Shown here piece after piece: positions 3,784 through 20,651 of a stretch of 64,000 bases of DNA. The stretch spans positions 133,341 to 197,340 of the forward strand of contig DS999406.1 of the NCBI GenBank assembly GCA_000158155.1, given 5' to 3'. The notes under the pieces are model-generated. The model saw only the letters and a program-made list of their open reading frames with translations, made no database searches and had not been told where the DNA came from. Every line of letters starts with the position of its first letter. Position 1 is the first letter of the stretch. This DNA is from a gamma proteobacterium NOR5-3. GTDB taxonomy: Bacteria > Pseudomonadota > Gammaproteobacteria > Pseudomonadales > Halieaceae. The position numbers and the translations under genes are program-made.

Positions 3784-3826
3784 GATAGGAACTCCAAAAG
3801 TCGTGTGCGTTCGATACAACTTCTAG

Positions 3827-3842
3827 GGCAACCCTCGTGCCA
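3827..3842 (-). promoter_or_regulatory. Sigma-54 (-24/-12) promoter of the sugar transferase gene
   Basis: On the minus strand this reads TGGCACGAGGGTTGCC. It has the GG and GC doublets with 10 bases between them and matches TGGCACG-N4-TTGC exactly. Transcription should start about 12 bases downstream (near 3816), roughly 33 bases before the ATG at 3783. Confidence 0.75.
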
Positions 3843-3938
3843 TGTGCTTAATTATTTTTAAATATCTGTTTTATATAGATATTTTTTCATTCGCCTCAAT
3901 TACGGCATAGCGGCGCACAAACGAATTCGCATAAAAAA

Positions 3939-3951
3939 TTGCAATTTGCGA
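3939..3951. promoter_or_regulatory. Candidate activator site (LuxO-like palindrome) shared by divergent EPS promoters
   Basis: TTGCAATTTGCGA is a TTGCA-N3-TGCAA palindrome with one mismatch, very close to the site I recall for Vibrio LuxO. It sits midway between the two sigma-54 promoters. The likely binder is the response regulator encoded at 16557-18002 (inference). Confidence 0.5.
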
Positions 3952-4060
3952 TGCATAAACGAAATGCCGCTACGCAGCCGCCTCATCACAACATGACAGG
4001 AACGCCAAAAAAATCTATAAACCATTGATATTATTGAGTTTATTGCTAAAAAAGCGATGC

Positions 4061-4076
4061 TGGCACGTACTCTGCA
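4061..4076 (+). promoter_or_regulatory. Sigma-54 (-24/-12) promoter of the plus-strand EPS operon
   Basis: TGGCACGTACTCTGCA has GG and GC doublets at the correct 10-base spacing and one mismatch (CTGC for TTGC) to the consensus. The predicted start is near 4087, some 50 bases before the preferred ATG at 4140. Confidence 0.7.
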
Positions 4077-4139
4077 TGGTGTATGGCACGAATGCCACCG
4101 GACGACTAAGCCATGCCAACACATCACGAAGAGCTCAGC

Positions 4140-6256: not shown

Positions 6257-7574
6257 CAGCGCTGACACTATGGCCGCAATAGAGCACCGGTTTGCCAGCA
6301 AAATGTGGCGGGCCGGGACTTTGGCGCTCAGCCGCGGAACGGGAATGGCTGCCCAGATGGCGGTGCAAATCGCGGTAGGCGCCTTAGCCGGACCTGCGGG
6401 AATCGGCACGCTACAACTACATATGGCCTGGGGCAGCCTTCTGGGCGAACTCGTAGGAGCCGGCGAGCCTACTCGCGCCCTGCGGGATCACTCCCTGAAC
6501 AGGAATAAAGGCTCGGCGATCAAACGCGGACTCATCAGAGCCAGCAATAACGTCCTGATGTACGCAGCCGCACTGGCCGCCTTTGTTCTGGTGCTTGTTT
6601 TTTCCGGACTTGCCGATGCGCTGGGCCTGCAAACCGGCCCCCTATTGGCATCAATTTTAATCTCGGCACCCCTGTTTGCACTGACACGCCTGCTCGCAGA
6701 AACCCTGAAGGCTCTGGACATGGCAATGTGGGCGGTGACGCTGGAAAACACCGTCATGCCGGTAACGATTTTGGGGCTCTGCGCACTCATCGCTACCGGC
6801 GTGGTGGCCGTATCCCAGACTGCCATTCTTTGCTCAGCAGTTGCCGGACTGCTACTGGGTCTTGTCCTGATGGCGCTATCCCTGCGCCAGCGATGCCGTG
6901 GTGCAGACAACCGTACAGCCGCTAACACAGGCCATCCAGTAGCCGCTATCAGCGTACGCGGCGAATCCCTGCATTTCTGGCTCAACGGCCTCTTGAATAT
7001 CGCATTCCTGCAACTGCCCTTTCTGATCATGCCCTGGCTGGTCACAGTTGAGGACATCGGGCGTTACGCTGTGGCGCACAAGCTGCTGAACGTAATCACC
7101 ACCTTGCTGATTCTCCTGTCAGCGGTGTATGCACCGCGCTTTGCACGCGCCGCGGCGGCGACAAATGGCACGGAGCTTCGAGCCCTACTGGCAGCAACCC
7201 AGCGCATATCACTGGCGATCTTTGTCCCCGCAGCGGCGATTATGCTGGCCCTGGCGGAGCCGCTGGCGCAGCTTTTCAGTCTTCGTCCCGGCGACTTGCT
7301 GCCTCTCCTGCTGCTGCTTTGCGGTGGGCAACTACTGAACGCAGCCACCGGGCTGTCCGGCGTGCTACTCAACATGAGTGGTGCCGCGCACCTTGAATTT
7401 CGTTTGCTCATTGCAAGCTGTACGGCGACCGCGCTTATCGCCGCCCCCCTGGGTCTGTCTTTTGGTGCAAACGGTATCGCGGCGGCCATCGCCGGCGGTA
7501 TTGCGCTGCGCAACATCAGCAGCTTTCTGGCCGTTCGCCGCCACATCAACAATCTCGAGTCACAATCACTATGA
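6249..7574 (+). CDS. Wzx-like polysaccharide flippase (MATE/MOP superfamily)
   Basis: A 441-residue polytopic membrane protein with about 12-14 hydrophobic segments from residue 30 to the end, in the pattern of Wzx/polysaccharide-biosynthesis flippases. These move the undecaprenyl-diphosphate-linked repeat unit from the cytoplasmic to the periplasmic face. The short N-terminus contains a basic stretch (RFASKMWRAGTLALSRGTG) before the first helix, as usual in this family. The start overlaps the GT4 stop by 8 bp. A second in-frame ATG lies at 6270. The gene is followed directly by the sulfotransferase (4-bp overlap). Assignment rests on topology and position, since Wzx proteins diverge strongly in sequence. 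Confidence 0.82.
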   Translation: MLSSADTMAAIEHRFASKMWRAGTLALSRGTGMAAQMAVQIAVGALAGPAGIGTLQLHMAWGSLLGELVGAGEPTRALRDHSLNRNKGSAIKRGLIRASNNVLMYAAALAAFVLVLVFSGLADALGLQTGPLLASILISAPLFALTRLLAETLKALDMAMWAVTLENTVMPVTILGLCALIATGVVAVSQTAILCSAVAGLLLGLVLMALSLRQRCRGADNRTAANTGHPVAAISVRGESLHFWLNGLLNIAFLQLPFLIMPWLVTVEDIGRYAVAHKLLNVITTLLILLSAVYAPRFARAAAATNGTELRALLAATQRISLAIFVPAAAIMLALAEPLAQLFSLRPGDLLPLLLLLCGGQLLNAATGLSGVLLNMSGAAHLEFRLLIASCTATALIAAPLGLSFGANGIAAAIAGGIALRNISSFLAVRRHINNLESQSL

Positions 7575-8494
7575 AAACCCTGGATTTCATCATCATCGGC
7601 GCGCAAAAGTGCGCCACCACCACGCTCTTTGAGCTACTCAGACAGCACCCGGGCATCGCTATGCCGATCGAAAAGGAGCTGCCGTTTTTCACCAATGAAG
7701 ATTGCGGGCCAGAAGCATGGAGCGCTTTTGCAGATCAATATTACGGCGGGGCCGATGGCAAACTCTGGGGCAAAGCCAGCCCCCAGTACATGGCTGATGA
7801 GGACATTCCCCGGCGCATGGCGGCACGCATGCCCGACACCAAACTGATCGCAGTGCTGCGCGACCCCATTGATCGCAGTCGCTCACACTTTCGCATGGCG
7901 CTGCGGCGCAACACAGAGGCCCGCTCATTTGATGAAGCTATGATTGACAGGCTGTCCGCTGAGGCACTGCACAGCGCACGCAAAGGTGCGGCGCCCACCC
8001 ACACCCATGGCTACGAATCAGAGAGCGATTTTTATCTGGTGTGGAGCGAGTACGGCCGCATTCTGGAAAGTTACCGCCAGCACTTTGCCCAAAAACAAAT
8101 GTTGGTGCTTTATACAAACGAACTGGAGGCTGACCCCCAGGGAGTTCTTGAGCGGGTGTTAGCCTTCCTGGATCTGTCTGGCGAATTCCAGCCTCGCGGC
8201 CTGGGCGAGGTGATGCATGCAGGCGGCGGCGGTGCACGCGTACCCCACGGCCTGCGCGTCTGGCTGCGCGAGCGCACCATCATTAGCGGCTTGTGGAGCC
8301 TGTTACCGCCACAGCAGCAGGGTCGTATTCGCTTTCTCTACGAGCGCTGGAATAGCCACAAGCGCAAAGACCCACTGCCGCTCGATGCGTCAACGGAGCA
8401 AGCCCTGCGTGAGCACTTTGCCGAAGACGCAAAGCGCATAGAGGCACTGGGAATCAGTAGCCCACCGTGGTCTGCTGACTATCGAGCAGCCTGA
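7571..8494 (+). CDS. Sulfotransferase, probable EPS-sulfating enzyme
   Basis: A 307-residue cytosolic-type sulfotransferase. The N-terminal 5'-phosphosulfate loop is FIIIGAQKCATTTLFELLRQHPG, with the basic residue and Thr of the PAPS-binding P-loop. The 3'-phosphate segment is AVLRDPIDRSRSHFRMAL with the conserved Arg and Ser. The C-terminal third (KDPLPLDASTEQALREHFAED) resembles heparan/glycolipid-type bacterial sulfotransferases. It transfers sulfate from PAPS to a hydroxyl. Because it is embedded in the EPS operon (4-bp overlap with the flippase gene, last gene before the 186-bp gap) the acceptor is probably the polysaccharide or its lipid-linked unit, which is inference. A sulfated EPS would suit a marine bacterium. 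Confidence 0.88.
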   Translation: MKTLDFIIIGAQKCATTTLFELLRQHPGIAMPIEKELPFFTNEDCGPEAWSAFADQYYGGADGKLWGKASPQYMADEDIPRRMAARMPDTKLIAVLRDPIDRSRSHFRMALRRNTEARSFDEAMIDRLSAEALHSARKGAAPTHTHGYESESDFYLVWSEYGRILESYRQHFAQKQMLVLYTNELEADPQGVLERVLAFLDLSGEFQPRGLGEVMHAGGGGARVPHGLRVWLRERTIISGLWSLLPPQQQGRIRFLYERWNSHKRKDPLPLDASTEQALREHFAEDAKRIEALGISSPPWSADYRAA

Positions 8495-8541
8495 ACTGCG
8501 CGAAAAACGCCTCAAAGTGCCGCATTTTGCAACTAAAGTGA

Positions 8542-8573
8542 TCGCAATATGCAATGCATTAAGCAATACGCAA
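8542..8573. promoter_or_regulatory. Candidate activator sites upstream of the export operon
   Basis: TCGCAATATGCAA (8542-8554) matches TTGCA-N3-TGCAA with one mismatch. A related copy (GCAATACGCAA, 8563-8573) follows at a 19-bp period, and the shared core GCAATAYGCAA is repeated. They lie about 57-88 bp upstream of the sigma-54 promoter at 8630, matching the palindrome at 3939. Confidence 0.5.
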
Positions 8574-8629
8574 TCCTGGGAGCCCACCAAAATACCAATA
8601 ACCCATTGTTTTAATTAAATAAAATGATT

Positions 8630-8645
8630 TGGCACCGCACTTGCT
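8630..8645 (+). promoter_or_regulatory. Sigma-54 (-24/-12) promoter of the export/assembly operon
   Basis: TGGCACCGCACTTGCT matches TGGCAC-N5-TTGCW with correct GG/GC spacing. The predicted start is near 8657, about 24 bases before the GTG of the SLBB export gene. The preceding sequence (8580-8629) is AT-rich. Confidence 0.78.
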
Positions 8646-8680
8646 CTGTTTAAGGTAACAAGTATTCAGAGTACAGACCC

Positions 8681-11605
8681 GTGACACACTCGATTGAAAG
8701 CCTCAAGAACCGCTCTACCATCTGCCGCTGTATAAGCGCCGCACTGGTACTGACGAGCCTGTATGGCACACCGAGCTTCGCACAGGACAACTACCAGCCG
8801 TTTATCGAGCCGCTGCAGGTCACGCAAAACCGAGCCTATTACAAGGCGGCTCCCACAGGACAGGACGAGCCCCTAAGCGTTCCGTTTTCGCCAATCTCGG
8901 CGCCGGTAGAGGCCACTAGTGACGAAGAGTCGCGCCTGGAAGCCCTGGCGCGGGAGAAGCAGCAGGCCCTGTCATTGGAGGAAGGCTCTCAGGACCAGGC
9001 ACTGACCGATGAGATCGAGCAGTTTGGCTATTCGATCTTCAACCGCTCGCCCAGCACCTTCGCCCCGGTAGAAGGTATTCCGGTTCCCTCTGACTACCGT
9101 ATTGGGCCGGGAGACAACATCGTCATTCAGCTCTTCGGCAAGCGGAATGTTCAATACAACCTGGTTGTGACTCGCGAAGGCAAGATTCTGATCCCTGAGT
9201 TTGGCCCCATCACGGTTGGCGGCCTGAACTTTGACGACGCAGAGACATTGATCACCAGTGGATTTGATCAGCGCATGATCGGTGCCCGGGCCGTCGTCAC
9301 CATGGGAAAGCTGCGCACCATTCAGGTTCGCCTGGCGGGCGATGTAAAGCAGCCCGGCATCTATACCATCGGCGGACTTTCCAGCCTCATCGACGCACTG
9401 CTGACCACCGGCGGCATCGCCGGAACCGGCACGCTGCGTGATATTCAACTCATCCGCGACGGCAAGATTGTGACTCACCTGGATCTCTATGAACTTTTGC
9501 TCGCGGGCAAAAGCGAAAGCGACGCTTTTCTTCAGCATAACGATACGATATTTGTTCCCGCCATTGGCGACATCGTCTATGTCGGTGGTGAGGTGCAACG
9601 TCCGGCGATCTATGAACTTCGCGGCGAGAGCACGCTAAAGCAAGTGCTGAATATGGCCGGAGGTTTACTGCCCTCTGCATCGCTGGGCGAGTCACTGATC
9701 GAACGGATCCAGAAAGGCGGAAGCCGCACGGTCATCGACTTTCATACCCGGGGCACAGAGCAGAACATGGCGGCGATTCTCGCCACCAAAATGCGCTCGG
9801 GCGATGTGCTGCGAATCCTGCCCCTGGAAGACCGGCTTGATGCAGTAGTGATGCTTGATGGTCACGTGGAACGCCCTGGCGCTTATCAGTTCGAAGCGGG
9901 CATGCGTGTATCAAGCTTATTGCGCGGCACCCAGGCCCTATTGCCCGGCGTAGATATGCGCTTTGCAATCATCGAGCGGGAAGATCGTCGGACGCTGCAA
10001 AGCTCTGTGATTTACATCTCGCCGAAATCTGCCTTGCAGGCGCCAGGCGAAGATAGTGATTACTTACTTCAAGCTCGGGATCGCATTCGGCTTTTCCGTA
10101 TGAACGAGAATCGCGAAGACTCGCTTGCGGGACTCAGCGACAAGTTTGCACGTCAGGCTACAGACCCCCGAGCAGCAAACTTGCTGGAGCTCCGGGGTGC
10201 TGTCCGCCACCGTGGTCGGTTTCCCCTCGCCCAGGGTGCCCGCCTGATGGACGCCTTGAATCTGGGCGGCGGCATGCAAAGCGGTGGCGACTTCAATCAC
10301 GGCATGATCGTTCGAACCGAGCTGCCCGGCCTTAACATCAAGGCGCTATCTTTTAGTGTTGCGGCCGCACAATTGAATCCCGGCAGCGACGCCAATCCAC
10401 TGCTGCAGGCCGGTGATCGACTCTACTTCCTTGACGAAAACGGTACTCGCAGCCAACTCCTTGCCGATGAAATACAGCGACTGAAAGATCAGGCGCGCTA
10501 TGGCGAGGTAGAGCGTGTTGTCAGTATTCTGGGAGAGGTTCTGAGCCCTGGAGAATACCCACTGGTCGACGGCATGCGAGCCAGCGATCTTGTGTGTACT
10601 GCACGCGGCCTGTCACGCCGTGCTGACGGCCTCAGCATGCAGCTGTCCCGTCGCAACGCGACAGATAATGTGCTGCAGCATCAGTCATTGGAGACCCGCG
10701 AGCTAATGACACTCTGCGCGGACCTGCATCGCCTAAACCGTGGTGAGCTCGACGCTGCCGCCGAAACCGCGTTTATGCAGCGCTACACCGACGATGTGAT
10801 CAACCCGGCACTCACGGCCCGGGACCAGTTGGCGGTAAGCCTGAGAAGCGGTTGGAGCGAAACCGCATCGGTGACATTGCGCGGCGAAATCCACAAGCCC
10901 GGCGTGTATGCCATTGGTCCCGGCGAGACGCTGTGCGAAGTGCTGCGTCGCGCCGGTGGGTTAACCGAGGCCGCCTATGCTTTTGGCGCAGAGTTTACGC
11001 GCCAGTCTGTACTGGACATCCAGCAGCAAACGCTGGATGAGCTCCACGATCAACTCGATGACCTTATGGTTGAGCTGTCGCTGTCCCACTCCTTTGCTAA
11101 TGACGAAAAAGCCTCCCGGGAATGGGGTGGTAAGCAGGACACCCTTAAAGTTATTCAACAGCTGGAGCGTGCAGAAGCAACGGGCCGCATGGTGATAAAT
11201 CTGGACAAGGTCCAGCGCTGTCGCAGCCGCGACGCCCTGGCTCTGGAAAACGGTGACGATCTGATGGTTCCTCGCGCACCCAACCATGTACAGGTAGCGG
11301 GTCAGGTCTATGTTGCGACCTCACACCTGTACGACGAGTCCCGCAGCATCAAGGACTATGTGGAGCTATCTGGTGGATCCACGGTACTGGGTCGTGTGGA
11401 CCACACCTATGTCATTCAGGCCAACGGCGAAGTCCTGAACCTGAAAGGCAAGCGCAGCTCGCGCAGCATCGCACGCCAGAACGTTATGCCCGGCGCCCGC
11501 ATTTATGTGCCTATTAACGTTGATCGGATGAATCCCACAGAAAAAGCACAGAGCTGGGTTAGCACGCTTGCTCAGGCGGCGATCCTTGCCGGCATCGTAC
11601 TGTGA
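8681..11605 (+). CDS. Giant SLBB-domain polysaccharide export protein (Wza-like)
   Basis: A 974-residue secreted/outer-membrane export protein. It has an N-terminal signal peptide (hydrophobic ISAALVLTSLYG, cleavage near SFAQ) with no lipobox Cys at the cleavage site. The Poly_export domain starts DYRIGPGDNIVIQLFGK (about residue 140). At least five SLBB-like beta-grasp repeats follow, marked by repeating GEV..PG.Y.L..G....L...AGG patterns (near residues 225, 300, 390, 505, 620, 730). A C-terminal hydrophobic tail ends the protein. Wza proteins are usually about 380 residues, so this is more than twice as long, like the long SLBB proteins of some marine gammaproteobacteria. It should form the periplasm/outer-membrane export channel. 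The GTG start has a weak ribosome site and follows the sigma-54 promoter at 8630. Confidence 0.88.
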   Translation: MTHSIESLKNRSTICRCISAALVLTSLYGTPSFAQDNYQPFIEPLQVTQNRAYYKAAPTGQDEPLSVPFSPISAPVEATSDEESRLEALAREKQQALSLEEGSQDQALTDEIEQFGYSIFNRSPSTFAPVEGIPVPSDYRIGPGDNIVIQLFGKRNVQYNLVVTREGKILIPEFGPITVGGLNFDDAETLITSGFDQRMIGARAVVTMGKLRTIQVRLAGDVKQPGIYTIGGLSSLIDALLTTGGIAGTGTLRDIQLIRDGKIVTHLDLYELLLAGKSESDAFLQHNDTIFVPAIGDIVYVGGEVQRPAIYELRGESTLKQVLNMAGGLLPSASLGESLIERIQKGGSRTVIDFHTRGTEQNMAAILATKMRSGDVLRILPLEDRLDAVVMLDGHVERPGAYQFEAGMRVSSLLRGTQALLPGVDMRFAIIEREDRRTLQSSVIYISPKSALQAPGEDSDYLLQARDRIRLFRMNENREDSLAGLSDKFARQATDPRAANLLELRGAVRHRGRFPLAQGARLMDALNLGGGMQSGGDFNHGMIVRTELPGLNIKALSFSVAAAQLNPGSDANPLLQAGDRLYFLDENGTRSQLLADEIQRLKDQARYGEVERVVSILGEVLSPGEYPLVDGMRASDLVCTARGLSRRADGLSMQLSRRNATDNVLQHQSLETRELMTLCADLHRLNRGELDAAAETAFMQRYTDDVINPALTARDQLAVSLRSGWSETASVTLRGEIHKPGVYAIGPGETLCEVLRRAGGLTEAAYAFGAEFTRQSVLDIQQQTLDELHDQLDDLMVELSLSHSFANDEKASREWGGKQDTLKVIQQLERAEATGRMVINLDKVQRCRSRDALALENGDDLMVPRAPNHVQVAGQVYVATSHLYDESRSIKDYVELSGGSTVLGRVDHTYVIQANGEVLNLKGKRSSRSIARQNVMPGARIYVPINVDRMNPTEKAQSWVSTLAQAAILAGIVL

Positions 11606-11619
11606 ACGGAGACGAGTCA

Positions 11620-12570
11620 ATGACCCACAACAACCACGTTGTCCCCGCACATCAAACAGCGGCCGCGAGCCTCGATTTGATGCCCTTTGTGAACGCACTG
11701 CTTAGCGCAAAGTGGATACTCGCCGCTGCACTCGTTATCGGCGCAGGCATGGGCACCTGGTTATCTATGACCACACCCTACAGCTATGTGGCCGGCTCCA
11801 AGGTCAGCATTGTCGACATCTCAGATCCCGGTGGCGTGTCTCCCGATGATCGTCGCGCATCTGAAGTACTGACCCTGGTGGAGCATGGCTTTGTCATGGG
11901 TACCACCCGTGACAACTACGCCGAAGTGATGCTGGCACGCCTGCGATCACGCAGCTTCACACTGCACTTTTTGGAGACGCACAACATCTATCGCCACTTC
12001 TACCCGGCTAAGTGGTCCGAAGAAACACAGTCCTGGAAAGACGGTTTCACACCGGACATCGGTGAGAGCTTTACGCGCTTTCGCGATGAGATCCGCATGA
12101 TCACCGTGGATGAAGAAACTGACATCGTTACTGTAGCCATGCGCTGGCAGGAACCGACGCTACCCCGGGACTGGGCAAACATGTACGTCGACACCTTTAA
12201 CGAATACATGCGTGACCGCACCACCGAGGAAGTGGTCCGCAAGCAGGCTTTTCTCGAAGAAAAGCTCCGTCAGTCAGACGTGGTGGAAATCCAGAAGTCG
12301 ATTTACCGCCTGATTGAGGCACAGACCGCCATCATGATGTTAGCCAACGCCCGGGAAGAGTATGTGCTGGAGATCATCGATCCCGCCGCACGCCCCTATC
12401 GCAGCGTAAACATGTCCAGAAAGAAGAAGATCGTCGTCGGCGGTATCGTTGGCTTGATGCTGTCTGTCTTCGCAGTCTTGGCCATCACGCTTTTGCTTCA
12501 GCTCTGGAACAGCTTCCAGACGGCCCGCGCATTGCATAACCAAATTGCCACTCGCACAGATATTTCCTGA
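11620..12570 (+). CDS. Wzz-like chain-length determinant (no tyrosine-kinase domain)
   Basis: About 316 residues with the Wzz layout: one membrane helix near residues 30-55, a long periplasmic domain with a coiled-coil region (about 190-240), then a second helix near residues 270-295 (VVGGIVGLMLSVFAVLAITLLL). A Pro-rich stretch (DPAARPYRSV) just before the second helix is the family mark. It should set polysaccharide length together with the polymerase and the export protein. Unlike Wzc it has no C-terminal Walker-type tyrosine kinase, and none is encoded elsewhere in the locus. The ATG at 11620 is preferred to the GTG at 11602 because GGAG lies 8 nt upstream; the GTG would overlap the export gene by four bases. 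Confidence 0.82.
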   Translation: MTHNNHVVPAHQTAAASLDLMPFVNALLSAKWILAAALVIGAGMGTWLSMTTPYSYVAGSKVSIVDISDPGGVSPDDRRASEVLTLVEHGFVMGTTRDNYAEVMLARLRSRSFTLHFLETHNIYRHFYPAKWSEETQSWKDGFTPDIGESFTRFRDEIRMITVDEETDIVTVAMRWQEPTLPRDWANMYVDTFNEYMRDRTTEEVVRKQAFLEEKLRQSDVVEIQKSIYRLIEAQTAIMMLANAREEYVLEIIDPAARPYRSVNMSRKKKIVVGGIVGLMLSVFAVLAITLLLQLWNSFQTARALHNQIATRTDIS

Positions 12571-12579
12571 GGAATCACC

Positions 12580-14151
12580 ATGAGCACTCTTACTTACAAC
12601 CCCGGCCGCGACTGCTTCAACTCCCTGGGTATCCCGGTGGACAATCTGACTCTGGACAGCGCGGTTGAGCGGATCATCGCTATGGCGTCATCCAAGGATG
12701 GTCGCGCACGCCTGGTATCGACACTGAATGCGGATTTCCTCGTCAACTGTCTGGGCACGGCACTATCCCGCCCACGACACCCGGAACTGCTGGAGGTGCT
12801 GCGCAGCTCCGATCTGGTGACCGCCGACGGATTCCCCATCGTCTGGCTGAGCCGACTACTGGGCAGGCCTATCAAGGAGCGGGTGTGTGGCTCAGACCTG
12901 GTGCCAGCTATTGCTGCACGCGCCGCGCAAGAAGGTCTGTCGATTTTTCTTCTGGGCGGCGCCGCAGGCGTTGCCGCACAGGCTGGTCGTGTGCTGGAGT
13001 CGAGCTACCCCGGTCTGCGTATCGCGGGAACCGCTGCACCTTTTGTAAAAACTACCGGTCGGGATCTGGCCTCTGCCGCCGAGGACGACCGCGCGCTGCT
13101 TGAAGAAATCCACGCATCCAAAGCGGACATTCTGCTTGTGGGCCTGGGCAACCCCAAGCAGGAGCTGTGGTTTAACCGCAATCGCAAGCAGCTTAAAACA
13201 CCGGTTTCTATTGGTGTTGGTGGTACTTTCGAATTTGTTATCGGCACGGTTCGCCGTGCCCCTGCAATCTGGCAAAGCATGAATCTGGAGTGGGTGTATC
13301 GCATCCTTCAGGATCCGGCTCGTCTGTGGAAGCGTTATAGCAAGGGCCTGTTCAAGCTAAGTGCTCTGGCTGCGCCGGTGATCATGCAACGCATTGCCCA
13401 GACCTTCCGATTTGGAAAAGCCGAAGTACCCGGGCCCGGCGCCCTACCCTGGCGGCGCCTGTGGTCGTCCCGGGATCAGTCTATCGCTCTTTTACCTTTG
13501 CCGCGCCGCATTGGCGCAGAGTATCTGCAGCGCATCGTTGAAGACCTGGCCAAGGAAACAGGTGCTACGGAACTGCGCATCCTGGATTTTTGTGCTGTTA
13601 AACACATTGCCCTGAACGCGCAGCAGGAGCTGTTTAACCTCGCCAGTCTTCTGCAAACCCAGCGGGCAAACATCCAGCTCATGGGCATGTCATCACAGCT
13701 GCGCCGACAACTCACTGCGGCGCGACTTATGGATCTTCTTGAGAATGACAACAAAGGCACCCTGGATCGTCTCGCCAGCCGCCCCACGGATTTTGCCTCC
13801 TTTGCCTGCCAGTCTTACGCCCTGAAGGATTCAACTTTGGTCATGCTTTCCGGACGGATCAACCGTGACTCTCTCAGTGAAGTTGGATTTGTGGAATGCC
13901 TGCTCGATAGCGTGCGTGATCGGCATTGCATCATCGACTTTCGCAACGTGGATTTACTGGAAAGCTCCGGCATCGCTGAGTTAATCCCCCTGTTCACCCA
14001 CACGGGCCCCAACGGCTCTGCGGTATTCCTCAGCGGCGCAGGACACAACATCAAACAGATGCTGCGCATGGCAGAAGTCCACAGCACTGCCGAAATTATC
14101 AATGATCGACAGCTACTGGAGCGTATCAGCAAGGAGAATCGCAGTGAGTGA
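12580..14151 (+). CDS. WecG/TagA/CpsF glycosyltransferase fused to two STAS domains
   Basis: A 523-residue fusion. Residues about 15-250 are a complete WecG/TagA/CpsF (GT26) glycosyltransferase: STLNADFLVN, LVTADGFPIVW, ERVCGSDLVP, FLLGGAAGVA, VGLGNPKQELW and IGVGGTFEF..G...RAP. The family adds a UDP-sugar (often ManNAc or ManNAcA) to a lipid-linked acceptor. After a basic linker (about 250-300), residues 305-400 form a STAS-like domain without the usual serine (KHIALNAQQE). Residues 415-515 form a second STAS domain keeping the phosphorylatable position (DLLESSGIAEL, Ser462/463). STAS domains are anti-anti-sigma modules switched by Ser phosphorylation or partner binding, so the fusion suggests post-translational control of the transferase (inference). 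Overlaps the GT2 gene by 8 bp. Confidence 0.88.
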   Translation: MSTLTYNPGRDCFNSLGIPVDNLTLDSAVERIIAMASSKDGRARLVSTLNADFLVNCLGTALSRPRHPELLEVLRSSDLVTADGFPIVWLSRLLGRPIKERVCGSDLVPAIAARAAQEGLSIFLLGGAAGVAAQAGRVLESSYPGLRIAGTAAPFVKTTGRDLASAAEDDRALLEEIHASKADILLVGLGNPKQELWFNRNRKQLKTPVSIGVGGTFEFVIGTVRRAPAIWQSMNLEWVYRILQDPARLWKRYSKGLFKLSALAAPVIMQRIAQTFRFGKAEVPGPGALPWRRLWSSRDQSIALLPLPRRIGAEYLQRIVEDLAKETGATELRILDFCAVKHIALNAQQELFNLASLLQTQRANIQLMGMSSQLRRQLTAARLMDLLENDNKGTLDRLASRPTDFASFACQSYALKDSTLVMLSGRINRDSLSEVGFVECLLDSVRDRHCIIDFRNVDLLESSGIAELIPLFTHTGPNGSAVFLSGAGHNIKQMLRMAEVHSTAEIINDRQLLERISKENRSE

Positions 14152-15190
14152 TCTGCGCGGCGTCTATATTCTGCTGCTGAACTGGAATGGCTGGCGGGAC
14201 AGCATCGCCTGCCTCGAGAGTCTGCTGCCGGATATCCATCGGGGCGCGCGCGTCATACTGTGCGACAACCAGTCCTGTGACGACAGTCTTGCACACATTG
14301 AATCCTGGGCTGCGGGCCATATCAGCGCAGACAAGCCGGTGCGCTCCCGCCTGGCAGCACTGCAAAGTTACGCGCTGGCAAAGCCGACAGTGCAGCGCAT
14401 GACGCGAGCGCAGGCCGAATCCGGTGAAGCAGACGCATCCGCGCAACTACTGCTGGTCGATAATGCCGACAACCTGGGCTTTGCGGCGGGTAACAATGTG
14501 GGCATGCGCTTAGCGCTGGCACAGGGTGACATGACACATCTGTGGCTGCTCAACAACGACACCCTGGTAGAGGCAGACTGCCTGACACAGATGCGTGAGC
14601 GACTGCATCATCACCCCGAGCCGGCTGTTTGCGGCTCGGTGATTCATTTCTTCGATAATCCAGAAGTTATCCAATGCATTGGCGGCAACCGTTTTGACGC
14701 CCGCCGGGGGCGGGCCATGGAATCAGAAGGTCGTTATCTCAAGGAAAGCGAGCTGCACACGCACAGCAGCGCGGAACAAACGCTGGACTACCTCACGGGC
14801 TGCTCTATGCTGTTGACTCGTGACTTTCTGGAGACCGTAGGCCTGATGAACGAAGCCTACTTCCTCTACTATGAAGAAATCGACTGGTTTACTCGCGCAG
14901 CGGGTCGATTCGACCTTATCGTGGCCCATGACGCGCGTTTGTATCACCGCGAAGGCGGCAGCATCGGCTCACGCAGCTGGAATCGGGGCCCCTCGCTGAC
15001 GTCCGATCGACACATGTTCCGCAGCAGAATTTACTTTATGCAGCGCTACTATCCACAGCACCTCTGGCGCTGCACCGTCAGCAATTGGCTGGACGTCGGC
15101 AAGCGTTTACTGAAGGGACAATGGCGGAATGCGGGCGTCATCGCCCGGGAGATCACATCGAATCCTAGCAGGCCACGAATCGTCCAATGA
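14144..15190 (+). CDS. Glycosyltransferase family 2 (rhamnosyltransferase-like)
   Basis: About 348 residues, GT-A fold. It starts YILLLNWNGWRDSIACLESLL, then has VDNADNLGFAAGNNVGMRLAL and the donor-binding WLLNNDTLVEADCL with the N-D-D/T variant of the DxD motif seen in WbbL-type enzymes. FLYYEEIDWFTRAAG is the ED-type catalytic loop of the family. It should add one sugar, probably a deoxyhexose, to the growing repeat unit; the sugar cannot be assigned. The GTG at 14144 has AAGGAG 7 nt upstream, so it is chosen over an upstream ATG at 14102 that lies deep inside the STAS gene. It overlaps the WecG-STAS gene by 8 bp and the polymerase gene by four bases (ATGA). Confidence 0.88.
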   Translation: MSDLRGVYILLLNWNGWRDSIACLESLLPDIHRGARVILCDNQSCDDSLAHIESWAAGHISADKPVRSRLAALQSYALAKPTVQRMTRAQAESGEADASAQLLLVDNADNLGFAAGNNVGMRLALAQGDMTHLWLLNNDTLVEADCLTQMRERLHHHPEPAVCGSVIHFFDNPEVIQCIGGNRFDARRGRAMESEGRYLKESELHTHSSAEQTLDYLTGCSMLLTRDFLETVGLMNEAYFLYYEEIDWFTRAAGRFDLIVAHDARLYHREGGSIGSRSWNRGPSLTSDRHMFRSRIYFMQRYYPQHLWRCTVSNWLDVGKRLLKGQWRNAGVIAREITSNPSRPRIVQ

Positions 15191-16497
15191 ATGCTGCACC
15201 AACATCAGCCTCGCCTTTTCAGATCAGCCTCAATCCACTGATCTACGCAACGATTTTCATGGCCACTTTTGCGGGCTGCCAGGGCGGGCGCTATTACCTG
15301 TCAAACCGTTTACAGGAGCTGGGTATTGCCTGCGCATTGCTGCTCTTTGTCATGGGCTGCTGGCAGGGTCTCTTTCGGCTGCAATACCAGGAGTGGCGAA
15401 GCTGGGTACTCAGCCCCCTGATACTTATCGGGGGCATCATCGGCATCAGCAGTATTGTATTTGTGCTCAACTATTCAGGCAGCGTGCTGTACAGCGCGTT
15501 TTCCGCAAGAGAGTTTCTTCTGGCCTTTATGGGGCCGGGCATTTATCTGCTGTGTCGATGTGGTTTACCCCTGAAAAACGTCGAGCGCACCATCTGGATT
15601 GCACTATTTGCCCTGATGATTAATTACCTGTTGTTTTACTTCACCATGGATCTTCGCGCTGCGTTTTTTTCCTCGGATCATACGGTGAGTAACCTTGTCA
15701 CCTACGATGCCTGGCGTGGCTTTCGCCTGAAACCACCGCTGTTTGCCATTATGGTTGCCCTGCTCGGAGCGCTGGCTCTGATCATGCAGTCCCGTGGCAA
15801 GGCCGTTAAAACGGCGGCATTCGCCAGTGTCGCTCTGGCGGCCTACATCTGGAGTATCGTGCTGTTTCGCTCTACTTTGGCGACCATGATCCTCTCGGTG
15901 ATGCTGTATCCCCTGCTTTTGTCGCATCGCAACCGGCTCAAGCTGATTGTGGTGATGGCGCCGCTTGTGGTGCTCGCGGTTCCCGTCGTCGGATCTCTGG
16001 CGGTAGACAACTTTATGGAGGCTGATGGCGGCAGTATCCGCGCCAAGGCGTTTCTTAAGGCCATGGAACACATCGCCATGCATCCCATACTCGGCGCAGG
16101 TGAAGACAGCGCCTACGGTCTGTCCTATCAGGAAATTGTCGCGCCGTATTTCTTCCCTTCGGACTTGGGCCTCATGGGCGTGACTTACAAATACGGTGTA
16201 GTGGGACTGATTTTGTATCTCACCATGCACGGCAAGATATGGCTGTGCCTGTGGTCAGCGAACATGGATTGTCGAGCAGCAGACGGACGCATCAACCCAC
16301 TACTGTGGGGCATGTTTATCTTCATGACGGCGCAAACGTTTAACCTGGCCCTCAATCCGGGGCTCGCCTACGCCCAGGGCATCACTCTGGGAAGTCTCGC
16401 TCTTGCCCTGGCAAGCCTGCACCGTGTTCGCTGCGCCGGCGTCGCCGGTAACAACGCTCTTGCACCATCGCATAATCTCCCCATACTGGACGCCTGA
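15187..16497 (+). CDS. Wzy-like O-antigen/EPS polymerase
   Basis: A 436-residue polytopic inner-membrane protein with about 11-12 helices. A large periplasmic loop between late helices carries NFMEADGGSIRAKAFLKAMEHIAMHPILGAGEDSAYG, which matches the loop of Wzy/O-antigen-ligase (Wzy_C) proteins where the catalytic Arg and His residues lie. Polymerases of this kind join lipid-linked repeat units in the periplasm. The gene overlaps the GT2 gene by four bases and is the last structural gene of the EPS locus. The 59 bp after it contains no strong terminator, so read-through into the regulator gene at 16557 is possible and would give positive feedback (inference). Confidence 0.8.
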   Translation: MNAAPTSASPFQISLNPLIYATIFMATFAGCQGGRYYLSNRLQELGIACALLLFVMGCWQGLFRLQYQEWRSWVLSPLILIGGIIGISSIVFVLNYSGSVLYSAFSAREFLLAFMGPGIYLLCRCGLPLKNVERTIWIALFALMINYLLFYFTMDLRAAFFSSDHTVSNLVTYDAWRGFRLKPPLFAIMVALLGALALIMQSRGKAVKTAAFASVALAAYIWSIVLFRSTLATMILSVMLYPLLLSHRNRLKLIVVMAPLVVLAVPVVGSLAVDNFMEADGGSIRAKAFLKAMEHIAMHPILGAGEDSAYGLSYQEIVAPYFFPSDLGLMGVTYKYGVVGLILYLTMHGKIWLCLWSANMDCRAADGRINPLLWGMFIFMTAQTFNLALNPGLAYAQGITLGSLALALASLHRVRCAGVAGNNALAPSHNLPILDA

Positions 16498-16556
16498 AGC
16501 GTGTTTGGCCCAAACTCCATGATCAATGCGAACCTGAGATTCATCGGACCCACTCT

Positions 16557-18002
16557 ATGACGGACGCTCTCAAGCTAATGATGGTTGAGGACAGCCCGTC
16601 GCTGGCTGCGATCTATAACGCCTATCTGAAAGATGAAAACTACCAGACTGTCACGGTGGACTCTCTGGGACGCGCGCATGCCACGCTCGACGCCTTTGTC
16701 CCAGACCTGGTGCTGTTAGATATCGAGCTTCCCGACGGCAGCGGTATTGATTTCCTTGAGCACGCCATGGCCCTGGACAAGCCACCTAAAGTGGTGGTGA
16801 TGACCGCACATGGCACCTCGGATATGGCGGTCAATGCCATCCAGATGGGCGCTTCGGACTTCCTCACAAAACCTTTTGATGCTGCGCGTCTGAAGGTGAC
16901 CTTGGGCAATGCTGCCGCCCAGCTTGATCTTGGCAAGCGCATCGAAGAGTTGTCGAATAAACAACGCTCGAATTACGCCGGTTTTATCGGCGCGTCCAAC
17001 CCCATGCAAACCGTTTATCAGACCATTGATTCATTGGCGCCCAGCGATGCTACGGGCTTCATCGTCGGAGAAAGCGGTACGGGAAAGGAACTGGCCGCAG
17101 AAGCAATTCATGCTCATAGTAACCGCGCGGGCAAAGAGCTCGTCGCCATTAATTGCGGTGCTATTCCCGGCGAGCTCATGGAAAGCGAGCTCTTTGGTCA
17201 TGTAAAGGGTGCCTTCACCGGCGCCAGCTCTGCGCGTGAGGGCGCGGCGAGCGTTGCCAATGGCGGCACGCTGTTTCTGGACGAGATCTGTGAAATGGAT
17301 CTTGACCTGCAAAAGAAGCTACTACGCTTTATCCAGACCGGCACCTTTCGCAAGGTCGGCAGCAATACTTTAGAAACCGTGGATGTGCGCTTTGTCTGCG
17401 CGACCAATCGAGATCCCCTGGTTGAAGTGCGCGAAGGGCGGTTCCGGGAAGACCTGTTCTACCGACTGCACGTAGTGCCGTTGAGACTGCCGCCACTGCG
17501 CGAGCGCGACCGGGATATTTTGTTGATTGCCCGGCACTTTCTCGAGGTTTATGCGACTCAGGCGTCTAAAGACTTTAAACGGTTTTCGTCCGCTGCCGAA
17601 GAACAGATGCTCCGCTACGCCTGGCCGGGCAATGTCCGTCAGCTCCAAAACGTTATTCAGCAGGCGGTCGTGCTCAACCAGGGAGAGCAGATCGAGATCG
17701 ACATGCTGGCTCTGAATGTTCATCAAGGCTTAATCGACAGTTTGGAGGCCACCCCATCCGGCAGTAGCACACCGAAGAGTGCTGGCGGGGACACAGGGAA
17801 CCATAGCGACACCGAGCAGGGAGAGCTTGCAAAGCGACGCGCTATCGAGCCGTTATGGATGGTAGAAAAGCGCGCTATCGAAGCGGCAGTGGCGGCCTGC
17901 GACGGCAATATCAATCGCGCCGCGGGTTTACTCGAAGTGGCGCCATCGACGCTCTATCGTAAGCGTCAGGCATGGATTGACGACAACAATCATGAGGGCT
18001 AA
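16557..18002 (+). CDS. Sigma-54-dependent response regulator, LuxO/SypG type
   Basis: A 481-residue NtrC-family regulator with three domains. The receiver (about 5-120) has acidic pocket E11-D12, phosphoacceptor Asp55 in LVLLDIELPD, Thr83 and Lys105. The AAA+ domain (about 140-380) has Walker A GESGTGKE (171-178), the sigma-54 contact loop GAFTGA (218-223), Walker B TLFLDEI and an arginine-finger region FREDLFYRL. A Fis-type helix-turn-helix lies at the end (INRAAGLLEVAPSTLYRKR). It should hydrolyse ATP to open sigma-54 promoters once phosphorylated. The overall look is closest to LuxO and SypG of vibrios. It is the only sigma-54 activator in the window and sits next to an EPS locus with three sigma-54 promoters. 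The downstream H-NOX gene starts 3 bp after its stop. Confidence 0.93.
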   Translation: MTDALKLMMVEDSPSLAAIYNAYLKDENYQTVTVDSLGRAHATLDAFVPDLVLLDIELPDGSGIDFLEHAMALDKPPKVVVMTAHGTSDMAVNAIQMGASDFLTKPFDAARLKVTLGNAAAQLDLGKRIEELSNKQRSNYAGFIGASNPMQTVYQTIDSLAPSDATGFIVGESGTGKELAAEAIHAHSNRAGKELVAINCGAIPGELMESELFGHVKGAFTGASSAREGAASVANGGTLFLDEICEMDLDLQKKLLRFIQTGTFRKVGSNTLETVDVRFVCATNRDPLVEVREGRFREDLFYRLHVVPLRLPPLRERDRDILLIARHFLEVYATQASKDFKRFSSAAEEQMLRYAWPGNVRQLQNVIQQAVVLNQGEQIEIDMLALNVHQGLIDSLEATPSGSSTPKSAGGDTGNHSDTEQGELAKRRAIEPLWMVEKRAIEAAVAACDGNINRAAGLLEVAPSTLYRKRQAWIDDNNHEG

Positions 18003-18005
18003 CAA

Positions 18006-18560
18006 GTGTACGGTCTGATCAACAGCGCACTTCAGGATATGGTAATCACACACTTCGGCGAGGAGCGCTGGAAAGCTGTACATCAGCATTCAGGCGTGTC
18101 CGACGACTCCTTCCTCACCATGCGCCGCTACGACGACGAGACCACCTACAGGCTGGCCGGCGCCGCCGCAGAGGTTCTGGAGGCGCCCATAGACAGCTGC
18201 ATGGAGATGTTCGGCAAACATTGGGTGGATGCCATAGCCACGCGAAACTTCGCGCCGCTTATGGATGCAACCGGCAACGATACCGTCGGCTTTTTACACA
18301 ATCTGAATGCGCTACACGATCGTATCGCCAGCACATTTTTAGACTATGTGCCTCCGGAGTTTCGCGTTGAAGATGTAGATCCGGACGCTGGTAGATACTT
18401 CGTCCACTACTACTCTGAGCGTAAGGGTCTGACTTCTTTTGTCACCGGATTGTTAGGCGGTTTGGCCGATCACTTTGGTGATCAGCTCGAAATTCTTGCC
18501 GTGTCTATTGATGATGACGGCGAAGGCACACACAGCGTATTTGAACTAATTATTCAGTGA
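18006..18560 (+). CDS. hnoX: H-NOX heme nitric-oxide sensor
   Basis: A 184-residue stand-alone H-NOX (heme NO/O2-binding, HNOB) protein, the usual length. It starts MYGLINSALQDMV like other members. The proximal heme ligand is His104 (NALHDRI), followed by the conserved Pro near residue 116. The heme propionate clamp YxSxR is present (Tyr135, Ser137, Arg139 in HYYSERKGL). In facultative and aerobic bacteria these proteins bind NO at very low concentration and inhibit or modulate a partner histidine kinase. The GTG start has GAGGGC about 8 nt upstream. It lies 3 bp after the response regulator and overlaps the kinase by four bases (GTGA), so sensor, kinase and regulator form one operon. I cannot tell from sequence alone whether it also binds oxygen. 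Confidence 0.93.
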   Translation: MYGLINSALQDMVITHFGEERWKAVHQHSGVSDDSFLTMRRYDDETTYRLAGAAAEVLEAPIDSCMEMFGKHWVDAIATRNFAPLMDATGNDTVGFLHNLNALHDRIASTFLDYVPPEFRVEDVDPDAGRYFVHYYSERKGLTSFVTGLLGGLADHFGDQLEILAVSIDDDGEGTHSVFELIIQ

Positions 18561-20584
18561 ACACAGAGCCCCGTCTTTCCTGGAAACAGCTGGAGAAGCT
18601 GTTCACCGTCATCATGTGTATCAATGATGACGGCGAGATTCTCTATAGCAGCGAAACACCCAAACGGCATATTCCGACGCTGAGCGAAGGCTCGCGGTTT
18701 TTCGACCTATTCAAATTACTGCGGCCTGCGGGGGCGCGCAATGTAACCGAAGTGCGCAAGCACCTGACTTCCCTGTTTTTGGTAAAGAGCGTTGACGAGC
18801 GCTTTGCCATGCGCGGCCAAATGGTGAAAACCACCTGGGAAGGAACGCCGGTTTTATGTTTCTGCGGCTCCCCCTGGGTATTCTGGATGAATGCCCATTG
18901 CCCTGATATCAAACTTGGCATGAATGACTTCTCGGCGCAGGACTCGCAGCTTGATCAGCTGTTTCTCATGACCACCGAACAACGCATGGTCAGCGATCTC
19001 GAAAAACTTAACGGCGAACTCCAACAAGCCAAGCAAGACACTGAATCCGCCCAAATGGCCAAAAATGCGCTGTTTGCACGAATGAGCCATGAGATGCGCA
19101 CCCCCTTAAACGGTGTGGTCAGCGCGCTTTCCCTGCTGGGCGATCACCCCATGAGCGCGCAGGCTCAAGACCTGTTGAGATTAGCCAGCAGTTCCTCGCG
19201 TAATCTACTGCACGTAATCAACTACGTGCTGGACATCTCCAAGATCGAAGCGGGCGAAGAGGTCTTTGATGCAACGGTTTTCGAGCTAAACACGCTGCTG
19301 CGTTCAGTAACAGATATTGTCAGAGCCCGCGCTGTGGAAAAACGCCTGGAGCTGTCATGGTCTGTAAGTCCACTGCTCAGTGATCTGTATGTCGGCGACA
19401 AATCCAAATTACGGCAATGTCTGTTAAACCTCGTCACCAATGCCATCAAGTTTACAGATAGCGGTAGCGTCGCAGTTCGCGCACTGCCATCAGCATCCGA
19501 GGACGCCGTCCGATTTGAGGTAGAGGATACCGGCAGCGGGATAAGTGCTGACGATAAACCCCGTATCTTTGAGCCTTTCTGGACTGGCATGAACGACAAC
19601 CTGTCACAAGAGCGCGGTACAGGGTTGGGTTTGGATCTTGTGCGGCGCTATGTCGCTGTTATGCATGGCACGCTGGGCGTAGCCTCACATATCGACAGAG
19701 GCTCTCTCTTTTGGTTTGAGGTACCTCTGGAGGTAGGCAGCGAGGAATCACTGGACGCCCTGGACACTATGCCGGAGACACAGAATGTTCCCGCGCGGTT
19801 TAAAGGAAGAGTCCTGTTGGTAGACGATAACTCGACCAATATGCTCCTTGGACGCCTCATTCTTGAATCTCTTGGTGTGACCGTCGAAGAAGCCTGCGAC
19901 GGGTCCGTAGCAGTAAAAAAGGCATTGAGTAAGCCCTTTGATCTGGTGCTTATGGATCTCAATATGCCGGTAATGGACGGGGTAGCAGCCACCACACTGA
20001 TCCGCAAAGAACGTAGCGAAGACGTACTACCGGTGGTTGCCCTGACGGCCTACGCCAGCAGTGAGGAGAAGGAGCGCTGCCTGCAGGTGGGCATGAATGA
20101 CTATCTCACCAAGCCCATCGTAAGAGACCGCCTGGCAGAACAACTTAACCGCTGGCTGGACGCCGAGACCGAATCTGAACGTCCGGGAATACGCAAAGAC
20201 CCCATAGCCGCCCCCATGACAAGCGAGGAGGAAGTAGATGCTCCACCAACACTGGCAACCGACGTTCTGGACGAATTGCGGGCGCAAATAGGCGAGGCCA
20301 GCCTGACGGCGGTTCTGGAGCAGTTTGAAGCCGAGGTAAACAGTCGCCGTCAGCAGTTTTCTGCGGCCATCGCTGCGGCGGATCTGCATGCGATTGTCAG
20401 GGAGGCCCATACCCTGGCCAGCACCTGTCGAAGTCTTGGGTTAGCAAGGGCAGGCATGTATTTCGCCATGCTTGAGCAGCAAATGCGCGATAGCAGTATC
20501 GCGGCCACCGACGAGAACCTCACAGAAGCTAATGAACTGCTTCGCGGTGGTCTTAAGGCGCTTGACGATTATCGACAAGCCTAG
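18557..20584 (+). CDS. H-NOX-associated hybrid histidine kinase with receiver and HPt domains
   Basis: A 675-residue hybrid kinase. Residues about 5-140 look like the HNOBA (H-NOX-associated) input domain. A short coiled coil follows (about 140-170), then HisKA with phosphorylated His178 (ARMSHEMRTPLNG) and HATPase_c (N-box LLNLVTNAIKF, G-boxes VEDTGSGI and GTGLGL). A receiver holds Asp466 (LVLMDLNMPVMDG), and a C-terminal HPt has His617 (REAHTLASTCRSLG). No membrane helix is seen, so it should be cytosolic. The expected phosphorelay is His178 to Asp466 to His617 to Asp55 of the sigma-54 regulator at 16557, with NO-bound H-NOX setting kinase activity. This layout matches HahK/HnoK-type kinases. 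The GTG start overlaps the H-NOX stop by four bases. Confidence 0.92.
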   Translation: MNTEPRLSWKQLEKLFTVIMCINDDGEILYSSETPKRHIPTLSEGSRFFDLFKLLRPAGARNVTEVRKHLTSLFLVKSVDERFAMRGQMVKTTWEGTPVLCFCGSPWVFWMNAHCPDIKLGMNDFSAQDSQLDQLFLMTTEQRMVSDLEKLNGELQQAKQDTESAQMAKNALFARMSHEMRTPLNGVVSALSLLGDHPMSAQAQDLLRLASSSSRNLLHVINYVLDISKIEAGEEVFDATVFELNTLLRSVTDIVRARAVEKRLELSWSVSPLLSDLYVGDKSKLRQCLLNLVTNAIKFTDSGSVAVRALPSASEDAVRFEVEDTGSGISADDKPRIFEPFWTGMNDNLSQERGTGLGLDLVRRYVAVMHGTLGVASHIDRGSLFWFEVPLEVGSEESLDALDTMPETQNVPARFKGRVLLVDDNSTNMLLGRLILESLGVTVEEACDGSVAVKKALSKPFDLVLMDLNMPVMDGVAATTLIRKERSEDVLPVVALTAYASSEEKERCLQVGMNDYLTKPIVRDRLAEQLNRWLDAETESERPGIRKDPIAAPMTSEEEVDAPPTLATDVLDELRAQIGEASLTAVLEQFEAEVNSRRQQFSAAIAAADLHAIVREAHTLASTCRSLGLARAGMYFAMLEQQMRDSSIAATDENLTEANELLRGGLKALDDYRQA

Positions 20585-20651
20585 CTAACGGTTCGGACGG
20601 AGGTCTGCTAGGCTCAGGTAACGTGCTCTTTTAAAGTAAGGGAAATACCTC

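What the first reader, a model, noticed from the sequence alone, without database searches (positions are those of the whole stretch)
16557..20584. H-NOX sensor, HPt-containing hybrid kinase and sigma-54 regulator as a complete nitric-oxide switch
Sequence: one tight operon encodes a sigma-54 response regulator (Asp55, GAFTGA), a stand-alone H-NOX (His104, YxSxR) and a hybrid kinase with HNOBA-like input, HisKA, receiver and HPt (His178, Asp466, His617). Knowledge: related parts occur in vibrios (H-NOX/HahK feeding the LuxO or SypG branch), but the kinase, HPt and sigma-54 regulator are usually scattered. Inference: here the whole relay, His178-Asp466-His617-Asp55, is self-contained and adjacent to the EPS genes it should control.
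Basis: partly seen in the sequence, partly recalled or inferred. Interest (0 to 1): 0.85.

Follow-up and report, generated by a model that had tools for sequence, protein, structure and literature searches.

The report
Built-in nitric-oxide switch for slime genes
Beside its predicted genes for a sugar coat (slime), a marine bacterium carries genes for a nitric-oxide-type sensor, a relay kinase and a gene activator, and likely landing sites for that activator stand in front of the coat genes in every relative examined, so nitric oxide would control the coat through one built-in circuit.

Summary
Window 16557-20584 encodes a LuxO-like sigma-54 response regulator, a stand-alone H-NOX and a hybrid kinase (HNOBA/PAS input, HisKA, receiver, HPt) in one tight operon; two residue numbers were one too low (receiver Asp467, HPt His618). 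The genome is a Congregibacter relative. The triad recurs at 33 of 40 H-NOX places in 140 family genomes; in 12 genomes it sits in or beside one conserved polysaccharide island. The new evidence is the output side: the three best sigma-54-type promoters of the window lie in front of island operons, each with a LuxO-type operator (TTGCAWWWTGCAA, 1-2 mismatches) upstream. Operator and promoter recur in 12 of 12 and 11 of 11 genomes examined, with spacing phased to the DNA helix most clearly at one promoter; 0 of 64 other promoter-like sites in the genome have the operator. Likely mechanism: H-NOX gates a kinase whose phosphorelay (His178-Asp467-His618-Asp55) drives the regulator on the polysaccharide promoters, a one-cassette version of Vibrio HnoX-HahK-SypF/LuxU-SypG. 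NO binding, phosphotransfer, sign of control and the product are untested. New variant of a known kind.

The parts
16557..18002 (+). LuxO/SypG-like sigma-54 response regulator (RR): receiver Asp55, AAA+ with GAFTGA (residues 218-223), Fis-type HTH
18006..18560 (+). stand-alone H-NOX, proximal His104, YxSxR 135-139; the only HNOB match in the genome
18557..20584 (+). hybrid histidine kinase: HNOBA/PAS input + helix (about 1-168), HisKA His178, HATPase, receiver Asp467, HPt His618
3939..3951 (.). predicted operator TTGCAATTTGCGA (LuxO UAS TTGCAWWWTGCAA, 1 mismatch), between two divergent sigma-54-like promoters
3827..3842 (-). sigma-54-like promoter TGGCACGAGGGTTGCC in front of the sugar transferase gene
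4061..4076 (+). sigma-54-like promoter TGGCACGTACTCTGCA in front of the 4113-8494 operon
8520..8566 (.). predicted operator cluster: CCGCATTTTGCAA 8520 (2 mm), TCGCAATATGCAA 8542 (1 mm), ATGCATTAAGCAA 8554 (2 mm)
8630..8645 (+). sigma-54-like promoter TGGCACCGCACTTGCT, best-scoring of the 64-kb window, in front of the export-gene operon
3085..3819 (-). polyprenyl-phosphate sugar transferase (Bac_transf; EPS_sugtrans over cut-off)
4113..5006 (+). DUF6492 protein, first gene of operon
5003..6256 (+). glycosyltransferase group 1
6249..7574 (+). flippase-like polysaccharide biosynthesis protein (Polysacc_synt_3)
7571..8494 (+). sulfotransferase
8681..11605 (+). polysaccharide export protein (Poly_export, SLBB)
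11602..12570 (+). chain-length-determinant-like protein (no Pfam match; weak NCBIfam match only, E 0.00092; name by position)
12580..14151 (+). WecG/TagA/CpsF glycosyltransferase fused to STAS; used as island marker
14102..15190 (+). glycosyltransferase family 2 (longest ORF; true start may be later)
15187..16497 (+). conserved protein in polymerase/ligase position (no family match)

Best explanation
This window carries a LuxO-like sigma-54 regulator, a stand-alone H-NOX and an HNOBA-hybrid-HPt kinase in one operon beside a polysaccharide island whose promoters bear likely sites for that regulator, so it is predicted to be a one-cassette nitric-oxide switch for polysaccharide production. Steps: (1) NO would bind the heme of H-NOX (inferred: heme ligand and YxSxR conserved). 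(2) H-NOX would dock on the kinase's HNOBA/PAS-helix input, as a split version of soluble guanylate cyclase, and inhibit its autophosphorylation (inferred; sign taken from Vibrio and Shewanella work). (3) Phosphate would run His178 -> Asp467 -> His618 -> Asp55 (the three kinase residues are invariant in 30 of 30; transfer untested). (4) Phosphorylated regulator would bind TTGCAWWWTGCAA-type operators about 55-160 bp upstream of -24/-12 promoters and open them with sigma-54 (sites shown and conserved, binding untested). (5) This would transcribe the sugar transferase gene, the 4113-8494 operon and the 8681-16497 export/polymer operon; with NO the island would go down. In this genome the sensor operon follows the island by 59 bp with no terminator-like site found in 16300-16700, so read-through would give positive feedback (inferred). 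The confidence below is for the wiring; the sign taken alone I put at about 0.65-0.7.
Against: No biochemistry. The operators have 1-2 mismatches in this genome. Genome-wide the operator is no commoner than its reversed control (7 against 6 sites), and in the window the looser TTGCANNNTGCAA has 6 one-mismatch sites against 3.5 in shuffles, so only position and conservation are informative. 21 of 33 triads are not beside this island, and 19 of those 21 show no operator (<=1 mismatch) within 300 bp of the regulator, so their targets are unknown. Helix phasing is weak at the third promoter (386 of 5000) and rests on hand-chosen operators in region B. Relatives are not independent samples. Terminator-like sites occur inside the island operon at about the rate of shuffles (19 against 15.7 over 3000-20800), and a weak sigma-70-like site at 16448 could drive the triad by itself. 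No NirK or NirS in the genome, so NO would have to come from outside or from another enzyme. The HNOBA score of this very protein is below Pfam's cut-off.
Confidence: 0.75

Rival explanations
1. Same circuit with the opposite sign: NO-bound H-NOX releases or activates the kinase, so NO switches polysaccharide production on, for instance as a shield or as an attachment cue.
For: The sign cannot be read from sequence; a review read in passages says NO-bound H-NOX may promote or repress biofilm depending on species, and low NO thickens V. harveyi biofilm (passages).
Against: [quoted passage not shown] passages).
Confidence: 0.25
2. The H-NOX senses something other than NO (oxygen, redox state, heme supply), so the wiring is right but the signal is not NO.
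For: Other signals are reported for H-NOX (a listed abstract describes redox sensing by heme-free Vibrio cholerae H-NOX); no NirK or NirS in this genome.
Against: Heme ligand and YxSxR invariant in 19 of 19; closest solved relative is Alr2278, an NO-binding Nostoc H-NOX (recalled); same kind of partner proteins as NO-responsive vibrio circuits. The distal pocket was not mapped here.
Confidence: 0.15
3. The triad is only a neighbour: it regulates genes elsewhere and the island is controlled by another sigma-54 activator.
For: 21 of 33 triads lie away from this island; the genome has seven other matches to the regulator at E <= 1e-60 among 11 candidates scored.
Against: The operator is that of LuxO, and the best other own match scores 291 bits against 1068 for the regulator itself (11 of 31 candidates scored); island genomes and close regulators coincide (12 of 14 each way, Fisher 1.1e-13, not corrected for kinship); in G036/G037, which lack the full regulator beside the island, a piece with its DNA-binding domain is still kept next to the island.
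Confidence: 0.1

Closest known systems
Vibrio fischeri HnoX-HahK-(SypF/LuxU)-SypG-syp
   Same: H-NOX gene in an operon with a hybrid kinase; relay through an HPt to a sigma-54 regulator that drives a polysaccharide locus (passages); overlapping LuxO/SypG operators (passages)
   Different: There hnoX-hahK is a separate operon and HahK works through the HPt of SypF or through LuxU; here kinase, HPt and regulator are encoded together with H-NOX and beside the island, in Halieaceae
Vibrio harveyi / V. parahaemolyticus H-NOX-HqsK-LuxU-LuxO
   Same: H-NOX-controlled hybrid kinase feeding LuxO through an HPt (V. harveyi: passages; V. parahaemolyticus: listing only)
   Different: Output there is quorum-sensing small RNAs; HqsK is described as lacking a sensory domain; here an HNOBA input is present and the output sites are polysaccharide promoters
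Nostoc H-NOX and HNOBA-PAS histidine kinase (PDB 2p04/2p08)
   Different: No LuxO-like regulator or polysaccharide island known to me there; that the two Nostoc proteins work together is recalled, not tested
Soluble guanylate cyclase (H-NOX + HNOBA + coiled coil + cyclase)
   Same: Same sensor and relay domains in the same order if H-NOX and kinase are read as one split protein (domain order of sGC recalled)
   Different: Two proteins, and a phosphorelay kinase in place of the cyclase
Shewanella / Pseudoalteromonas H-NOX-kinase networks
   Same: H-NOX next to a histidine kinase (passages)
   Different: Output there runs through c-di-GMP enzymes and other regulators

Membership tests
H-NOX (HNOB) proteins | HNOB profile match over cut-off | tested here: met
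   151.8 bits against 25.5
H-NOX (HNOB) proteins | proximal heme His and YxSxR (motif names recalled) | tested here: met
   His104, Y135-S137-R139; invariant in 19 of 19
H-NOX (HNOB) proteins | heme and NO binding | not testable with these tools
   needs purified protein
HNOBA input domain | Pfam HNOBA over curated cut-off in this protein | tested here: not met
   19.4 bits against 23.4; yet 20 of 30 homologues match at E <= 0.01, so I call the domain HNOBA-like
HNOBA input domain | fold of the sGC/Nostoc kinase PAS domain (that this is the HNOBA fold is recalled) | tested here: met
Hybrid histidine kinase with HPt | HisKA, HATPase, receiver, Hpt with phospho-residues | tested here: met
   all four over cut-off; H178, D467, H618 invariant in 30 of 30
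LuxO (Vibrio equivalog NF041946) | score over the equivalog cut-off | tested here: not met
   607.7 bits against 800; best family by far, so LuxO-like but not filed as LuxO
LuxO/SypG-type activator (works like) | receiver + sigma-54 AAA with GAFTGA + Fis HTH | tested here: met
LuxO/SypG-type activator (works like) | TTGCAWWWTGCAA operators upstream of sigma-54 promoters of its presumed targets | tested here: met
   12 of 12 and 11 of 11 genomes with <=2 mismatches; consensus from passages of PMC10162802; binding not tested
LuxO/SypG-type activator (works like) | fed by an HPt phosphodonor | not testable with these tools
   HPt is in the neighbouring kinase; transfer not shown
Vibrio syp-type polysaccharide locus | orthologous syp genes | not tested
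   island compared only within the family

The most novel reading that the evidence does not exclude
H-NOX feeding a LuxO-type activator on TTGCAWWWTGCAA/sigma-54 promoters of polysaccharide islands is an old matrix-control cassette of gammaproteobacteria, carried whole by the island and headed by a split guanylate-cyclase sensor; the Vibrio quorum-sensing LuxO and symbiosis SypG branches are later, scattered re-uses of it. A distant lineage (G292) with H-NOX directly beside a LuxO-like regulator and a polysaccharide export gene fits this.
Probability: 0.15. Interest if true: 0.85.

Novelty: new variant of a known kind. Interest (0 to 1): 0.62.

Why it matters
It would give a complete, testable gas-to-matrix circuit in a marine gammaproteobacterial group (Halieaceae, OM60/NOR5), with sensor, relay, activator, operators and promoters all placed on a short stretch of DNA. 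It makes the question of how H-NOX speaks to a kinase approachable (a split sGC with a phosphorelay in place of a cyclase), and points to LuxO-type operators at work outside quorum sensing. If NO lowers the polysaccharide, NO from plankton or neighbours would tell these bacteria when to leave or stop coating particles.

Tried and rejected
Artefact or chance: rejected; the triad and its order recur at 33 of 40 H-NOX places, and the operators beat shuffles and eight scrambled palindromes. Of the 33, G077's regulator frame is broken by a stop and G097's kinase is cut by the contig end.

Operator as a genome-wide regulon: sites with at most one mismatch are no commoner in the genome than the reversed control (7 against 6), and none of the 64 other sigma-54-like sites has an operator 30-260 bp upstream (the promoter pattern itself occurs 67 times against 34 for its reversed control). 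So I claim only the island here.

Class-wide spread: of 370 class genomes, 26 have HNOB in 30 places. Of the 29 places other than the window none shows this triad; one (G292) has H-NOX next to a LuxO-like regulator. These loci had flanks of at most 1.5 kb, so a triad farther off would be missed.

H-NOX without the triad in the family: a second H-NOX of G027, and G001, G003, G004, G036, G037; G084's contig ends after the H-NOX. In G037 another H-NOX with a different kinase, an HD-domain protein and an NtrC-like regulator lies about 5-9 kb from the island; G036 has an H-NOX and an NtrC-like regulator at similar distances, its kinase and HD gene not scanned.

Qrr-like small RNA: an operator plus promoter downstream of the kinase in some relatives was thought of first as a possible sRNA gene; in L041 and L038 a short ORF follows instead and in L042/L047 a secreted-looking ORF. 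Not pursued.

Own NO source: no NirK, no NirS. NorB, NOS, Hmp not searched.

Literature: no held paper has both Congregibacter and H-NOX. In PMC2654016 (C. litoralis) 'nitric oxide', 'exopolysaccharide' and 'polysaccharide' occur 0 times in the main text (H-NOX was not among the terms); in PMC10100682 (Halieaceae genomes) 'H-NOX' and 'exopolysaccharide' occur 0 times; in PMC8895600 (evolution of two-component quorum sensing) 'H-NOX', 'Halieaceae' and 'SypG' occur 0 times. The rows shown (parts of longer lists) name no such operon in this group. PMC8846402, the one paper with both H-NOX and HNOBA, was not opened. The library is open-access only, so 'not in print' is not claimed. Nothing was read in supplements.

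Rows dropped: the regulator of L050 (broken frame) from the tree; kinases of L050, L051 and L058 from the 30-row alignment (L046 has none); 13 of the 32 H-NOX, and G014's, from the 19-row one, without a test of bias. In the phasing test the 12 distances of region B were chosen by hand (one operator per genome), a weak point; region A has one operator per genome. G032 and G036 (contig ends) are not in region B; G014, G032 and G036 are not in region A; G046 shows only one of the two region A promoters because its contig starts there.

Full report
What is there. Three genes in one tight operon (gaps 3 and -4 bases). 16557-18002 is a sigma-54 response regulator, 18006-18560 a stand-alone H-NOX, 18557-20584 a hybrid kinase with HisKA, HATPase, receiver and HPt. 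The H-NOX is the only one in the genome, and this HPt is one of two HPt domains found. The closest named relatives of the kinase are from Congregibacter, and the G012 contig has the length of the C. litoralis record listed there, so the family is taken to be Halieaceae.

Relay. His178, Asp467 and His618 are invariant in 30 of 30 kinases. Transfer to Asp55 is inferred from the operon.

Output regulator. Its best NCBIfam model is LuxO, 607.7 bits against 385.8 for the next, but under the equivalog cut-off of 800; its best solved relative is LuxO (427 bits; then LuxO pieces at 330 and another NtrC-family protein at 294). It is LuxO-like, not filed as LuxO. The best other match in its own genome scores 291 bits (11 of 31 candidates scored).

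Conservation. In 140 family genomes H-NOX occurs in 39 (40 places). A script found the regulator-H-NOX-kinase triad on one strand at 32 of 40; G014 was missed because of a long H-NOX start but has it, so 33 of 40; among these G077's regulator frame is broken and G097's kinase is cut by the contig end. The island marker (WecG-STAS) occurs in 14 of 140 genomes, all 14 with H-NOX and 12 with the triad in or beside the island (Fisher 2.3e-9 and 3.2e-7, not corrected for kinship). G013, of the same genus and 91% complete, lacks H-NOX, marker and close regulator together. The front part of the island (sugar transferase, DUF6492, glycosyltransferase, flippase, sulfotransferase, export) is conserved in the relatives fetched, apart from DUF6492 in two of them and contig ends.

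Promoters and operators. A weighted -24/-12 scan of the whole window puts its three best scores at 8630+, 4061+ and 3842-, all in intergenic DNA in front of island operons (the weights are mine, consensus recalled). The published LuxO operator is TTGCAWWWTGCAA (passages of PMC10162802). The looser TTGCANNNTGCAA has six one-mismatch sites in the window against 3.5 in shuffles; the two with an A/T spacer, 3939 and 8542, are the ones in those two regions. The whole genome holds seven sites with at most one mismatch to the full pattern, and six for its reversed control. In relatives, region B (before the export gene) has operator and promoter in 12 of 12 genomes, and region A (between divergent operons) has an operator in 11 of 11, with promoters on both sides in 10 (G046 is cut by the contig start). 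Together 36 operators with at most two mismatches, where dinucleotide shuffles average about 1 per region set (maximum 5) and eight scrambled palindromes gave 0-5. In the own genome 67 sites fit TGGCAYN5YTGC, 34 its reversed control: the three at the island have an operator 30-260 bp upstream, the other 64 have none. At the sugar transferase promoter the distance takes the values 71, 82-83, 92-93, 103-105, one helical turn apart (R 0.92; 0 of 5000 null draws, 26 of 5000 with each value counted once); region B agrees with hand-chosen operators (8 of 5000); the third promoter does not reach this (386 of 5000). RpoN is present.

Autoregulation. In 8 of 33 triad loci an operator with at most one mismatch lies within 300 bp upstream of the regulator gene (shuffles: mean 0.17, maximum 2); one search pairs none of these with a sigma-54-like site. 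LuxO is recalled to repress its own gene. In this window no such site is seen. The operon follows the island by 59 bp with no terminator-like site in 16300-16700 and one weak sigma-70-like site at 16448; over 3000-20800 terminator-like sites occur at about the rate of shuffles, some inside the island genes (19 against 15.7). Read-through from 8630 is possible but untested.

Rewired cases. G036 and G037 (one genus) keep the island and, in G037, operators and promoters (G036 could not be examined), but beside it only a short piece with the regulator's DNA-binding domain. In G037 an H-NOX with a different kinase, an HD-domain protein and an NtrC-like regulator lies about 5-9 kb away. In a far lineage, G292, H-NOX lies directly beside a LuxO-like regulator (534 bits to LuxO) and a polysaccharide export gene, with no kinase match within 1.5 kb. 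The regulator tree puts 11 of 12 island regulators in one moderately supported group (84/92) with G027 and G118 inside it; G010 falls outside.

How it works. H-NOX would gate the kinase through the HNOBA input; phosphate would reach the regulator; the regulator would open the island's sigma-54 promoters. In Vibrio fischeri NO-bound HnoX inhibits HahK, which acts through SypF or LuxU on SypG and the syp polysaccharide locus (passages of PMC12369376), and in V. harveyi HqsK acts through LuxU on LuxO (passages of PMC6769237). By analogy NO would lower polysaccharide; the sign is my least certain step (about 0.65-0.7).

What is new. The parts are known; the arrangement is a compact, island-borne version with its own HPt and regulator, in a group where I found no description (and the rows shown; open-access library only), and the output side is located to the base. 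New variant of a known kind.

Noticed in passing
L041 about 12515-12880 and L038 about 7551-7240 (minus strand): An operator plus sigma-54-like promoter precedes a short ORF (about 80 aa) with a shared motif around LFxxLCKLGxS in both relatives; function unknown.
   Followed up: partly
L042 6795-7407 and L047 7701-7000 (minus strand): A perfect operator and a sigma-54-like promoter precede an ORF that by eye looks like a secreted repeat or matrix protein (not scanned).
   Followed up: partly
L068 6314-8577: In G037 a perfect operator (8577) lies in front of a DUF4842/GEVED gene beside another H-NOX operon; no sigma-54-like site was paired with it.
   Followed up: partly
L198 7852-11275: G292, another family of the class: H-NOX next to a LuxO-like regulator and a polysaccharide export gene, no kinase match within 1.5 kb.
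   Followed up: partly
L065 about 15464-15680, L068 about 4220-4423: Short piece with only the DNA-binding domain of the regulator kept right after the polymerase-like gene in G036 and G037.
   Followed up: partly
12580-14151: WecG-type glycosyltransferase fused to a STAS domain, a pairing that seems unusual to me.
   Followed up: no
7571-8494: Sulfotransferase inside the island suggests a sulfated polysaccharide.
   Followed up: no
G077:C88:2723-4084 (L050): The regulator match contains one in-frame stop and its ORF is broken; maybe sequencing error or decay.
   Followed up: no
g21 genomes such as G060: Close relatives of the regulator occur in a number of genomes without H-NOX; in G060 (L200) it stands without H-NOX or kinase beside it among the ORFs listed.
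   Followed up: partly
own genome: Neither NirK nor NirS found, so an NO source of its own by denitrification is not evident.
   Followed up: partly
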